DNA of 64,000 nucleotides from Halobacterium hubeiense (GTDB lineage Archaea > Halobacteriota > Halobacteria > Halobacteriales > Halobacteriaceae), in assembly GCF_001488575.1 (NCBI RefSeq), contig NZ_LN831302.1, forward strand, positions 868,001 through 932,000, given 5' to 3'. The translations under genes and the position numbers were made by a program. The notes below the pieces were generated by a model. It did not search any database. It was not told the DNA's origin and saw only the letters and a list, made by a program, of their open reading frames with translations. How positions within the stretch are numbered: the first letter of the stretch is position 1; every line of letters starts with the position of its first letter. Positions 45,484 to 50,221 of this stretch are shown here, in pieces.

Positions 45484-45488
45484 TTTTT
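45484..45488 (+). terminator. T-run terminator after the histidine kinase
   Basis: Five T on the coding strand about 16 nt after the kinase stop. Confidence 0.4.
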
Positions 45489-45680
45489 CGACAGAAATGC
45501 ACCGACCGGGAGTGAGCAGTCCGGAGGACTGCGAACGCCGAAAGACGCTCTTGCGTCTTTCGGGATTTGAACCGTTGTGAGACGTTCCTGCTCGCTTTGC
45601 TGCGCGGGCTGCGACTCACAGGGTTCAGAATCCCTGTGTATTTCGTCTCGCTTCGCTCGACAGAAATGCACCGACCGGGA
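45488..45680 (-). repeat. Degenerate duplicate of the tRNA-Gly 3' end with hairpin insertion
   Basis: TCGACAGAAATGCACCGACCGGGA (24 nt in total; the first bases TCGACAGAAATGCACCGACC) occurs at 45488-45511 and again at 45657-45680, the second covering the true tRNA 3' end and trailer. In the outer copy a 49-nt segment (45512-45560) interrupts the T-stem, flanked by the 5-nt duplication CGGGA (45507-45511 and 45561-45565), after which T-arm sequence CGGGATTTGAACC resumes (45561-45573). Hairpins inside: GCAGTCC-GGA-GGACTGC (45516-45532) and an 11-bp stem 45538-45563. Confidence 0.8.
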
Positions 45681-45738
45681 TTTGAACCCGGGCCATGAGC
45701 TTGGAAGGCTCAGGTCCTAGCCACTAGACCATCGGTGC
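45668..45738 (-). tRNA. tRNA-Gly (anticodon TCC)
   Basis: A 71-nt cloverleaf on the minus strand. Acceptor strands GCACCGA (from 45738 inward) and TCGGTGC pair fully; the anticodon stem TGAGC/GCTCA encloses the loop CTTCCAA, so the anticodon is TCC (reads GGA, and GGG by wobble). The T-arm CCGGG-TTCAAAT-CCCGG is perfect. No intron and no encoded CCA (ATT follows). Partial copies of both ends flank the gene. Confidence 0.95.
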
Positions 45739-45798
45739 GCTGCGCTTCGCTTGCGCACCGTGGCTCGCAAAACCTTCGGTTTTGCTCACCATCGGTGC
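45728..45798. repeat. Inverted and direct partial copies of the tRNA-Gly 5' end
   Basis: ACCATCGGTGC (tRNA 5' end, plus-strand view) is at 45728-45738 and again, direct, at 45788-45798. Between them is GGTGCGC-12 nt-GCGCACC (45734-45759; loop TGCGCTTCGCTT) and GCAAAACC-TTC-GGTTTTGC (45767-45785), whose arm GGTTTTGC falls at the expected TATA position for the tRNA promoter. Confidence 0.75.
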
Positions 45799-46464: not shown

Positions 46465-48570
46465 TCACCCGAGGACGAGGAACGTGCCGTACGCGATGGC
46501 GAGCATCAGCGTGGCGTGTTTCGCGCCGGCTTTCACGCTCCCCTGTCCCATCTGTCCGGCGACCAGCCCCGAGCAGACCGCCTGCACGAGGCCCGTGTGG
46601 AAGAACACCAGACTGTACGAGTCCTTCGTCGCCTGCGTGAGGTTGGCGGTCCGCGAGAACGCGCCCGAACTCCCGCCCGCGGGGAGCTGGCCGGCCGGCG
46701 CCGTCGTCTCCACGACGGGGATGTTCGGGATGAAGATGACGTCGAGCGCGACGATGATGGCGAGGAACACGAAGAAGGCGATGTAGATGACGACGAGGTA
46801 CGTCAGCAGTTCGCTGCGGCGGTCGCGTTCGAGGCGCCGCGTCGCCTTCGCCTCGTTGGCGGCGATGCGCAACACGGGGCCGAGGTCGCCGCTGGCCCGC
46901 ATCGCGTTCGTCGTCAGCGTCACGACCCGGGAGATGGCGGGCGTGGCGGTGCGGTCGCGGAACCGGCCGAGCGCGTGCTCGATGCGCGCGCCCCACTGCA
47001 CGTCCGCCCACGTGCGTTCCAGTTCCGTGGTGAGCGCGCCGAGGTCGCTGCCGACGACGCGCCCGAAGCTCTGGACGACCGGCATCCCCGCCTCGTTCGT
47101 GGACGCGAACCGGTCGAGGAAGTCCGGCACGCCCGCCTCGATGGCTTTCACGCGGCGCCGGTGGAGCTCGTACGCGACCGTGAACGTCCCGAGCACGAAC
47201 AGCGTCGCGTGCACGAGCGGGTCGTCGTACGCGGTGAGGTCGGTGACGCCCGCCGACGCGAGCGGCCACCACTGGACGAGCAGGTAGAGCGCGGCGAGCG
47301 GCACGGTCGCGTACAGCAGCACCGTCGGGGACTCGCGCACGACCGACACGGGGTTGCGCAGCCGGTAGAGTATCGGCCGCAGCGCCTCGTAGGTGGCGAG
47401 GCGCTCGCGGTTCTGTTCGGTGGCCGCACCGGCCGTCTGGCCGCCGTCCGCGCGCGCCGCTCGCTGGGGGATGGACTGGAAGCGCGTCCCCGCCTCCGAG
47501 CCCTCGTCGCCGGTGACCTCGCCGCCGGTCGCGGTCCCCGTGATGCTGTCGAGGTAGACGACGAACCCTACGGTCGCCATCGGAATCAGCAGGTACGCGG
47601 TGAACTGCAGGAACGTCAGCGTGTCCGCGAGCGTGAGCCCGACGACGACGAGGATGGTGATGAGGAACAGCGGCCCGGCGACCAGCAGCGTGACGTACGC
47701 CTCCGCGAGCGTCGCGAGCAGTTCGAGGAACTGCTCCTGCTGGGCTTCGGCTTCCTCGGCGTAGTAGTCGTACTGGCGCTTCAGGAACCCCGGGAGGTCG
47801 CGGCCGCTCTGGAGGACGCTCGTGAGGTTCTCCGAGAACTCCGCGAGCTCCTCGCTGGGCGTGCGCTGGCCGAGCCGGCCGAGCGCGCGGAGGATGTCGG
47901 CGCCGTACATGTCCACGTCCTTGACGGCGACCGCCATCTCCTCGGCGCTCTCCCCGTAGACCTCGCGGTTGCGCGAGAGAATCCGCAGCACCTCGGGGAG
48001 CGCCATTCCGCTGCGGGAGAGCGCGTACAGGAACGCGACTGTGCGCTCCATCGACGCGTCGATGCGGCGCTCGCGCTCGCCCGCCCGGTAGCTCGGCATC
48101 GTCCACCGGGACTGGTAGGCGGCGTACGCCGCGAGCACGCCCAGCGTCGCGCCCGACGCGAGGAAGAGCGCGAACAGTTCGCCGCCGGAGAAGCCGCTGA
48201 CACTCTCCACGAACAGCCCCTGTACGGCCGCGGGGAACTGCGACTGGAGGCTCTCGGACGCGCTCCCGAGGAACACGAGCACGCTCGCGACGAGGTAGAC
48301 GCCGAGGATGCTGCCCGCGAGCGCGCCGACGGTCGCGTAGAGGAACGTCCGCGAGGCGTACACGCGGTACGTCTGCGGGACGTGGGCGCCCTGTAGCGCG
48401 GCGACCTGTCCGGGGTTGGCGTCTCGGCGCCGCCGCGCGAACCCGCCGAACGCCGCCAGCGACAGCCGGGAGACGAGCCGGTCTATCGGGGCGAACACCG
48501 GCGCCGCCGCGAGCGCGAACAGGACCGCCAGCACCGCGACCAGCGGCGCGAAGACCAGCGGCGACGCCAT
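46465..48570 (-). CDS. Type II/IV pilus assembly membrane protein (TadC/PilC-like)
   Basis: Encodes 701 residues with two tandem T2SF/TadC-type units: helices near 10-25, 75-100, 118-150, a cytosolic helical domain with FLYALSRSGMALPEVLRILSRNREVYG, helices near 295-345, then a second copy with FLDRFASTNEAGMPVVQSFGRVVG and three final helices (to 701). This duplicated form is normal for archaeal pilus/archaellum platform proteins. It anchors the assembly ATPase encoded immediately upstream; ATG 48570 is one base after the ATPase stop. No pilin genes lie next to it. Confidence 0.92.
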   Translation of the reverse strand: MASPLVFAPLVAVLAVLFALAAAPVFAPIDRLVSRLSLAAFGGFARRRRDANPGQVAALQGAHVPQTYRVYASRTFLYATVGALAGSILGVYLVASVLVFLGSASESLQSQFPAAVQGLFVESVSGFSGGELFALFLASGATLGVLAAYAAYQSRWTMPSYRAGERERRIDASMERTVAFLYALSRSGMALPEVLRILSRNREVYGESAEEMAVAVKDVDMYGADILRALGRLGQRTPSEELAEFSENLTSVLQSGRDLPGFLKRQYDYYAEEAEAQQEQFLELLATLAEAYVTLLVAGPLFLITILVVVGLTLADTLTFLQFTAYLLIPMATVGFVVYLDSITGTATGGEVTGDEGSEAGTRFQSIPQRAARADGGQTAGAATEQNRERLATYEALRPILYRLRNPVSVVRESPTVLLYATVPLAALYLLVQWWPLASAGVTDLTAYDDPLVHATLFVLGTFTVAYELHRRRVKAIEAGVPDFLDRFASTNEAGMPVVQSFGRVVGSDLGALTTELERTWADVQWGARIEHALGRFRDRTATPAISRVVTLTTNAMRASGDLGPVLRIAANEAKATRRLERDRRSELLTYLVVIYIAFFVFLAIIVALDVIFIPNIPVVETTAPAGQLPAGGSSGAFSRTANLTQATKDSYSLVFFHTGLVQAVCSGLVAGQMGQGSVKAGAKHATLMLAIAYGTFLVLG

Positions 48571-48571
48571 G

Positions 48572-50221
48572 CTACTCGCCGACACCCGGCGCGTTCACGA
48601 CGACGTCCTCCTCGAGCTCCGAGCGCACGCGCTCGACGACCCGTTCGGGGTTCGCGTAGTACTCGTTGACGACGGCCGTGAACTGGCGGTAGTCGGTGAC
48701 GTCCTTCTGCGTGAGGTACTGGAGGACGCGCTTGCGGTTCCGCAGCTCGCGCAACAGCTCGCCCCGCGACCAGCCGCGCTCGTCGCGAATCTCGTCGAGG
48801 ACGACCGAGTCCCGCTGCTCGAAGTCGTCGTTGCCGGGGTTCCACTCGAACGCCGTCGAGTAGTCGAGGTCGCCGGTGCGCTGGTCGATGCCCTCGATTT
48901 CCGCGATGACGCGGTTCCGGCGGACGCGCTCGCCGCCGACGTGCGTGAGCGTCTGCACGCAGAGCACGTCGAGGCTCTGAATCATCGCCCGCGGGACGTT
49001 GATGGGCTCGTTCTCTAGCCGATTGATGACCGTCTGCACGCTGTCGGCGTGCATCGTCGAGTACGTCGTGTGGCCGGTGTTCATCGCCTGGAACAGCGTC
49101 ATCGCCTCGTCGCCGCGCACCTCGCCGACGATGATGTATTCGGGGCGGTGCCGGAGCGCCGACCGGAGCAGGTCGTACATCGTGATGTCCTCGCCTTCAC
49201 CGATTGACTCCCGCGTGACCGACGACAGCCAGTTCTCGTGGAACAGCGTCAGCTCGCGGGTGTCCTCGATGGTGAGCACTTTCGAGCGCGGCGGCACGAA
49301 CATCGAGATGGCGTTCATCGACGTGGTCTTCCCGGACGCGGTGCCGCCCGCGAACAGCAGGCTCTTGTTGGACTCGATGGCGAGCCAGAGGTACGCCATC
49401 TGGTCGAGGTCGAACGTGTTGTAGTCCACGAGCGTCGCGGGCGTGAACGGGTCCTCGCTGTACTTCCGAATCGTGAACGCCGACCCGCGGGGCGTGACCT
49501 CCTCGCCGAGCGCGAGCTCCGCGCGGGAGCCGTCCGGGAGCGTCGTCTCCGTCACGGGGTCGCCGATGGAGATGTGGCGGCCGGACTGCTGGGCGAGCCG
49601 CACCACGAAGCCGTCCAGTTCCTCCTGCTCGTAGGAGACGTTCGTCTCGACGTCCGTGTACTGGTCGTGGTAGACGAACAGCGGCACCTCGTAGCCGTCA
49701 CAGGAGATGTCCTCGATGTGGGGGTCACGCATCACCGGGTCGAGCTTCTCGAACCCCTCGAAGGTGCGGTGGAGGTAGTAGAACAGCCGGTAGAAGGCGT
49801 TCGGGTCCACGTCGATGCCGTACTCCTCGATGAGCCGCTTCATCTGCCGCTTCAGCACGGCCTCGGGGTCGTCGGGCTCGTACTCGGCGTCGTAGATGAG
49901 CGCGTCCCGGATGTCGTCGTACAGCGTCTCCAGCAGGTCCCGCTCGAAGTCGTCGAGCCCGGGTTCGACGACGTGGTAGCGGTACTCGTCGTTGTCGGCG
50001 TCGTGGCCGACGTAGACGAACGCGTAGGGCGCGTGCACCCAGTAGCGGTCGACCTCCTCGTAGCCGTCGAGGCCATCGAACTCCACGAGCGGCCCGTGGG
50101 CGGCGGGGTCGTACTCGACGAGTTCGACCGTGGAGCCGCGGACGACGTCGACGACGCGCTCGGCGCGCTCTCGGAGAGTCTCGAACTGTCGTTCGAAGTC
50201 CGCGAGGAAGTCGGCGGGCAT
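48572..50221 (-). CDS. Type II/IV secretion system ATPase (TadA/PilB/VirB11-like)
   Basis: Encodes 549 residues. N-terminal domain of about 160 residues, then the ATPase core: DPHIEDISCDGYEVPLFVYH, GSAFTIRKYSEDPFTP, Walker A LLFAGGTASGKTTSMNAIS, Asp box VLTIEDTRELTL, Walker B RPEYIIVGEVRGDEAMTLF and the His box MNTGHTTYSTMHADS. A hexameric motor for adhesion pili or a related surface filament. With the TadC-like gene it forms a two-gene core operon. Confidence 0.95.
   Translation of the reverse strand: MPADFLADFERQFETLRERAERVVDVVRGSTVELVEYDPAAHGPLVEFDGLDGYEEVDRYWVHAPYAFVYVGHDADNDEYRYHVVEPGLDDFERDLLETLYDDIRDALIYDAEYEPDDPEAVLKRQMKRLIEEYGIDVDPNAFYRLFYYLHRTFEGFEKLDPVMRDPHIEDISCDGYEVPLFVYHDQYTDVETNVSYEQEELDGFVVRLAQQSGRHISIGDPVTETTLPDGSRAELALGEEVTPRGSAFTIRKYSEDPFTPATLVDYNTFDLDQMAYLWLAIESNKSLLFAGGTASGKTTSMNAISMFVPPRSKVLTIEDTRELTLFHENWLSSVTRESIGEGEDITMYDLLRSALRHRPEYIIVGEVRGDEAMTLFQAMNTGHTTYSTMHADSVQTVINRLENEPINVPRAMIQSLDVLCVQTLTHVGGERVRRNRVIAEIEGIDQRTGDLDYSTAFEWNPGNDDFEQRDSVVLDEIRDERGWSRGELLRELRNRKRVLQYLTQKDVTDYRQFTAVVNEYYANPERVVERVRSELEEDVVVNAPGVGE

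What the first reader, a model, noticed from the sequence alone, without database searches (positions are those of the whole stretch)
45488..45680. Partial tRNA-Gly 3' duplicate interrupted by a 49-nt hairpin insertion with 5-nt flanking repeats
A 24-nt direct repeat of the tRNA-Gly 3' end plus trailer lies 169 nt away from the real one. In the outer copy the T-stem is split by 49 nt consisting of two perfect hairpins (7-bp and 11-bp stems), bounded by CGGGA on both sides, as a target-site duplication would be. Direct copies of tRNA 3' ends are classical attachment-site scars, but only about 150 nt lies between the copies and no integrase is present, so this may be the scar of an excised element or the product of slippage plus a palindromic insertion.
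Basis: partly seen in the sequence, partly recalled or inferred. Interest (0 to 1): 0.6.

Follow-up and report, generated by a model that had tools for sequence, protein, structure and literature searches.

The report
Haloarchaeal tRNA-end hairpin insertion units
The odd duplicated tRNA end is one copy of a large, apparently undescribed family of about 100-150-base hairpin units in salt-loving archaea; they sit mostly just downstream of tRNA genes, carry a forward and a backward copy of the local tRNA end around a conserved hairpin, and show signs of being mobile.

Summary
It is not a one-off scar. A covariance model of H2 plus arms finds 1-30 such units in each of 13 congeners and none in the roughly 124 sampled genomes outside the order. 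Most units follow tRNAs, of about 25 isoacceptors. The stems covary, and the arms match the local tRNA. Units differ in presence between congeners, form tandem arrays, and occur at two non-tRNA sites. One of those, purS/purQ, gives a clean empty/occupied comparison: an 83-bp insertion with a 5-bp direct repeat. Most likely these are non-autonomous elements moved as folded single-stranded DNA hairpins that pair with their target. The enzyme is unidentified; integron-attC-like and IS200/IS605-like mechanisms both fit, and neither membership is established.

The parts
45667..45738 (-). tRNA-Gly(TCC); its T-loop-to-3'-end stretch is the target sequence X
   Evidence: ARAGORN; Rfam RF00005, 67.8 bits
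45657..45680 (-). Inner copy of the 24-nt direct repeat: tRNA 3' end plus trailer TTTCTGTCGA
45645..45661 (-). H1: small hairpin GTC-GA-GCGAAGC-GA-GAC between the tRNA end and the inverted copy
   Evidence: sequence; DNA fold
45621..45634 (-). X': inverted T-arm copy (GGGATTCTGAACCC on the tRNA strand)
   Evidence: sequence; model alignment; family-wide match to the local tRNA
45576..45620 (-). H2: conserved hairpin with core AGTCGCAGC-[stem-loop]-AACGTCT
   Evidence: pattern at 45580-45615; covariance model hit 45552-45643, 74.1 bits; covariation
45561..45573 (-). Direct T-arm copy X (GGTTCAAATCCCG), truncated at the T-stem in this genome
   Evidence: 13-nt repeat of 45676-45688; uninterrupted in G009, G006, G001
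45512..45560 (.).
   Evidence: sequence; variants in G011, G002 and at tRNA-Gly(CCC), and class B alone in G007 and G012
45488..45511 (-). Outer copy of tRNA 3' end plus trailer; read as the right end of the class B unit
   Evidence: the same right end CTCCCGGTCGGTGCA in G007 and G012
45753..45798 (-). Upstream counterpart: direct copy of the tRNA 5' end (45787-45798), hairpin GTGAGCAAAACC-GAA-GGTTTTGCGAG, inverted copy (45753-45763)
   Evidence: sequence; same layout with changed stems in relatives

Best explanation
The feature is one member of a haloarchaeal family of short (roughly 80-150 bp) non-coding, non-autonomous insertion units. Each carries a small left hairpin (H1) and a right hairpin (H2) with a conserved core. 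An inverted target copy X' stands just 5' of H2 and a direct copy X just 3' of it, so in single-stranded DNA X' pairs with X and the folded hairpin presents a duplex half-site that looks like the target (T-loop plus T-stem 3' strand). I propose that a recombinase or transposase recognises the folded single strand, breaks it at the GT.. start of X and joins it to a like target, mainly the T-loop GTTC of a tRNA. The tRNA 3' end is thereby re-supplied and the old end displaced outwards. Repeated events make tandem arrays, and fusion with a second hairpin class gives the form in this window. Shown: architecture, covariation, local arm matching, presence/absence differences and one clean insertion. 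Inferred: movement as single-stranded DNA, and the enzyme.
For: Same X-H1-X'-H2-X layout at many tRNAs of this genome and in 13 of 13 congeners. Covariation: 126 double-change cells vs 42 +- 5.5 shuffled, 0/500; sliding controls fall from 87% to 28-47% paired. X starts at GTTC in 39/40. X' matches the local tRNA over T-loop and T-stem, 18.5 vs 13.8, sd 0.43, 0 of 20,000 permutations. Clean 83-bp gain with direct repeat AGTCA at purS/purQ in 4 congeners against 9 empty ones, with TGAC/GTCA in the same register around H2 as GAAC/GTTC. Unit at a T-loop-like GTTCGAC at a protein-gene 3' end; three congeners reading CTTCGAC there are empty. Presence/absence at the orthologous tRNA-Gly. Tandem arrays at about 101-156 nt.
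Against: No enzyme linked: Y1 transposase and tyrosine-recombinase loci of this genome carry no matching hairpin. No excised circle or recent jump seen; all polymorphism is between species. Only one clean empty/occupied pair. Many arms match a local tRNA, so either each unit lineage is target-specific or arms are copied from the target, which a simple insertion does not explain. Covariation could partly come from templated correction of palindromes.
Confidence: 0.5

Rival explanations
1. Replication fold-back (template switching at palindromes, as in inverted triplications) made X-hairpin-X'-hairpin-X from local sequence; no mobile element is needed.
For: Direct-inverted-direct layout with hairpin junctions, arms copied from the local target, tandem copies, class B and C units of the same layout, and core-less variants at tRNA-Leu(TAG), Met and Asn.
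Against: Empty purS/purQ sites contain neither hairpin, so hairpins were imported. Near-invariant core AGTCGCAGC/CCGTCT at unrelated loci and genera. Exact T-loop boundary, GTTC 39/40.
Confidence: 0.2
2. Attachment-site scars of conventional tRNA-targeting integrative elements (SNJ2-type or other integrases) whose bodies were lost.
For: Direct repeats from the T-loop to the tRNA 3' end are typical of such attachment sites; haloarchaea have many integrases and islands at tRNAs (PMC8371274).
Against: Islands of 2-60 kb at tRNA-Val(CAC) in congeners have attachment repeats without the hairpin and sit between the tRNA and an older unit. Units are always about the same small size with a conserved hairpin. 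No unit at integrase loci. No structured match in viral contigs, phages or plasmids.
Confidence: 0.12
3. A structured RNA transcribed with the tRNA, for instance a 3' processing or termination element or a tRNA decoy.
For: Strong covarying hairpin with fixed orientation, mostly immediately downstream of tRNAs.
Against: Only about 14 of 42 surveyed tRNAs of this genome have it; orthologous copies absent in congeners; also at protein genes; no Rfam family. G.U pairs only 5 of 435 in helices 2-3 and loops largely GNA, which suits DNA, though weakly.
Confidence: 0.1

Closest known systems
Integron attC sites (folded single-strand recombination sites)
   Same: Hairpin with AAC/GTT-type feet, R-like arm, unpaired asymmetric spacer, L-like arm with mismatched or extra bases, variable terminal stem; tandem arrays at a platform (features from PMC2727003).
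   Different: No integron integrase (0 of 146 genomes over the TIGR02249 cut-off), no ORF in the units, platform is a tRNA T-loop, arm of about 11-13 nt copies the local target.
IS200/IS605 ends, IS608, and PATEs of Haloquadratum
   Same: Guide 5' of the hairpin foot pairs with a cleavage/target site (PMC5934647); non-autonomous elements with subterminal palindromes are known in haloarchaea (PMC3119063).
   Different: Pairing is up to 11-13 bp instead of 4; no shared ends with the four Y1 transposase loci of this genome; strong tRNA preference; X on both sides.
REP elements (GTAG or CGTC superfamilies) moved by RAYTs
   Same: Short tagged palindromes spread over a genome; the H2 foot contains CGTC.
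   Different: REPs are 20-40 bp with an unpaired tag (PMC3733652); here CGTC lies inside the stem region, the units are longer, tRNA-directed and carry target copies; that paper reports no haloarchaeal family in the passages read.
Small mobile repeats (SMR) of Haloquadratum
   Same: 80-110 bp, non-coding, mobilisation unknown, tend to insert in palindromes (PMC3119063).
   Different: SMRs have terminal inverted repeats, no target duplication and mostly >95% identity within a type; here the arms are target copies and only a short core is conserved.

Membership tests
integron attC / integron | AAC...GTT feet, unpaired central spacer, unpaired stem bases, variable terminal structure | tested here: met
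   GTTC 39/40, GAAC 24/40; fold and covariation; attC features from PMC2727003. Met as a structural resemblance only.
integron attC / integron | IntI-type integrase in the genome | tested here: not met
   TIGR02249: 0 of 146 genomes of the order over cut-off; weak hits are general tyrosine recombinases
integron attC / integron | recombination of the folded bottom strand | not testable with these tools
   needs an assay
IS200/IS605-type element (PATE) | guide 5' of hairpin complementary to cleavage site 3' of it, and to the target | tested here: met
   TGAC/GTCA at purS/purQ, GAAC/GTTC in tRNA units
IS200/IS605-type element (PATE) | ends shared with an autonomous TnpA element | tested here: not met
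   no model hit at the four Y1_Tnp loci of this genome; other genomes not tested
IS200/IS605-type element (PATE) | no target duplication | tested here: inconclusive
   5-bp direct repeat at purS/purQ may be a duplication or equal left and right cleavage sites
classical MITE | terminal inverted repeats plus fixed-length target duplication | tested here: not met
   the 78-bp purS/purQ element has no terminal inverted repeats by inspection (ends CGCGAGCC and CTTTCGGA); target duplication seen at one site only
integrase attachment-site scar | element body or integrase between the repeats, or hairpin at the ends of such elements | tested here: not met
REP | 20-40 bp palindrome with unpaired terminal GTAG or CGTC tag | tested here: not met
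   91-position conserved unit with CGTC in the paired region (definition from PMC3733652)
known structured RNA (Rfam 15) | match to a curated family | tested here: not met
   only tRNA found at gathering threshold

The most novel reading that the evidence does not exclude
Haloarchaea have a gene-less, integron-like or DNA-guided system in which short single-stranded hairpins carrying an 11-13-nt copy of a tRNA T-arm insert at T-loops, using chromosomal tRNAs as platforms for tandem arrays, with an enzyme not yet linked to it.
Probability: 0.3. Interest if true: 0.85.

Novelty: new variant of a known kind. Interest (0 to 1): 0.64.

Why it matters
It turns an isolated oddity into an order-wide element family with a testable structure. 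If it moves as folded single-stranded DNA, it would add an archaeal system to the few known ones (integron cassettes, CTX-type phages, IS200/IS605) and would show how target-matching arms arise. In any case it explains many 'partial tRNA' repeats in haloarchaeal genomes and warns against reading them as prophage scars.

Tried and rejected
Rfam scan of the locus: only the tRNA. Viral contigs: one hit without the fold and none with a stricter pattern; phages none, plasmids only short weak matches. Integrase-scar reading: islands at tRNA-Val(CAC) proved to be separate from the units. Common ends with Y1-transposase or tyrosine-recombinase loci: none. Integron integrase: none over cut-off. An early impression that nearly every tRNA has a unit was wrong; about one third do. 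G.U scarcity as proof of a DNA-level fold: suggestive only, since tRNA acceptor stems also have few. The first site list was biased by the GCGAAGCGAG loop in the search pattern, so the loop-free pattern was used for loop statistics; even there the loop finder was crude. The 1-4 exact-core counts per genome stand against a reversed-pattern control that is often 0-1 but not always, so those counts alone are weak; the covariance-model counts are the ones relied on.

Full report
Observation. The window lies in genome G000 at C1:868001-932000. That it is haloarchaeal rests on the named haloarchaeal records that share the element and on the relatives sampled.

What was missed. On the tRNA strand, after the trailer comes a small hairpin H1 (45661-45645), an inverted T-arm copy X' (GGGATTCTGAACCC, 45634-45621), a hairpin H2 with core AGTCGCAGC...CGTCT (45620-45576), and then the direct T-arm copy X (GGTTCAAATCCCG, 45573-45561). 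Only then do the 49 nt and the outer tRNA-3'-end copy follow. The tRNA 5' end has a similar direct-hairpin-inverted arrangement upstream (45798-45753).

Family. The same architecture stands behind tRNA-Gly(CCC), Ser(GGA), Ser(CGA) (two in tandem), Val(GAC), His, Leu(TAG), Val(CAC), Arg(GCG), Val(TAC), Met, Asn and others of this genome. Of 127 core sites, 55 lie within 600 nt downstream of a tRNA on the same strand, over about 25 isoacceptors. A covariance model from 40 copies finds 1-30 units in each of 13 congeners. In a phylum sample of 148 genomes, 22 have hits, all of the window's order (stricter filters there). Of 27 top hits fetched, 26 have a tRNA within 600 nt. In this genome about 14 of 42 surveyed tRNAs have a clear direct copy, so the unit is common but not universal.

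Structure. Pair counts: 87% of cells paired against 75% shuffled; 126 double-change cells against 42 +- 5.5; pairs 26-66 and 27-65 vary through four pair types without a single broken pair. Sliding controls drop to 28-47% paired. Apical loops are often GNA (51 of 102 distinct sequences by a crude rule), a loop type known from very stable DNA mini-hairpins (own knowledge; GCGAAGC mini-hairpins appear in the DNA aptamer literature). G.U pairs are rare (5 of 435). This leans towards a DNA-level fold but does not prove it.

Arms copy the local target. X begins at the T-loop GTTC in 39 of 40 and matches its own tRNA best in all 41 units tested. X' matches its own tRNA T-loop and T-stem far better than permuted tRNAs (18.5 vs 13.8, sd 0.43, 0 of 20,000) but hardly beyond (acceptor part P = 0.02). 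X' is therefore an arm of about 11-13 nt.

Mobility. At the orthologous tRNA-Gly(TCC), with synteny given by the upstream methyltransferase gene, congeners G011, G009, G006, G001 and G002 have the unit while G003, G008 and G010 do not; G007 and G012 have only a second hairpin unit ('class B': spacer with an inverted acceptor copy, hairpin GTTCGCA...TGCTCAC, then CTCCCGGTCGGTGCA). At purS/purQ (gene names from reading the frames, not from an annotation) nine congeners read GAC-AGTCA-TTC and four, including this genome, read AGTCA-78 bp-AGTCA with the H2 core: a clean 83-bp gain with a 5-bp direct repeat. The inverted TGAC stands 2 nt before the H2 stem and GTCA 3 nt after it, the same register as GAAC/GTTC in the tRNA units. 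A third site is the 3' end of a protein gene at GTTCGAC, where the direct copy restores the gene end; three congeners whose gene reads CTTCGAC are empty there, although a fourth empty one reads GTTCGAC and G002 reads CTTCGAC with a remnant. Tandem arrays with about 101-156-nt spacing are frequent, and one relative has at least three identical units (L196).

The 49 nt. But it contains the class B hairpin, and class B ends in its own CTCCCGGTCGGTGCA. The simplest reading is a class A unit joined to a class B unit, with the class A copy truncated at TCCCG; the flanking CGGGA pair is then the two T-stem copies and not a target duplication. The segment between (the AAAGACGC hairpin) differs in G011 and G002 and at tRNA-Gly(CCC), so it has been remodelled. 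This step is inferred; a true small insertion at that spot is not excluded.

Mechanism. Shown: architecture, covariation, local arm matching, polymorphism and one clean insertion. Inferred: the folded single strand is the substrate. Two known chemistries fit. Integron attC recombination uses hairpins with AAC/GTT feet, an unpaired central spacer, extrahelical bases and a variable terminal structure (PMC2727003). IS608 uses a guide 5' of the hairpin that pairs with the cleavage and target site and can be re-targeted (PMC5934647). Neither cognate enzyme was linked to the units, so no membership is claimed. A pure replication fold-back model explains the direct-inverted-direct layout and the core-less variants but not the imported, near-invariant H2 core and the exact T-loop boundary.

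Literature. In the open-access library searched I found no description of these units. The nearest haloarchaeal entries are PATEs and SMRs of Haloquadratum (PMC3119063). Most subscription papers are not held, so novelty is provisional.

Noticed in passing
G000 C1:2057399-2057489 (L254): A unit of the family sits between two genes that read as purS and purQ and are close-packed in nine congeners; the 83-bp gain separates them in this genome, G003, G007 and G002.
   Followed up: yes
L021, L024-L026, L033, L041, L053, L062, L067 and others (Halorubrum): A high-copy, longer composite repeat (..GCGAGCGGGAGCACGGAA-core-TTCCGG..GGGACTCAAAGGGGCAG..) carries the same H2 core away from tRNAs; it may be a separate expansion.
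   Followed up: partly
tRNA-Val(CAC) loci of G010, G005, G012 (L284-L297): Islands of about 2, 6 and 60 kb lie between the tRNA and its conserved flank or an older hairpin unit; at least the first two end in a long copy of the tRNA 3' part. Gene content was not examined.
   Followed up: partly
L170 (G009), downstream of tRNA-Gly(TCC): A longer duplicate including the anticodon arm (CTGAGCCTTCCAAGCTCATGG) lies downstream, so larger parts of the tRNA are sometimes copied.
   Followed up: no
window 46947-47042 (+): ARAGORN calls a tRNA-Ile(GAT) here, antisense to a long ORF (46465-48585 -), but the Rfam tRNA model finds nothing there; probably a false call.
   Followed up: partly
G000 C1:2159505-2159637 (L145), tRNA-Ser(GGA): The H2 stem-loop is itself interrupted by two further hairpins, as if one palindrome had inserted into another.
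   Followed up: no
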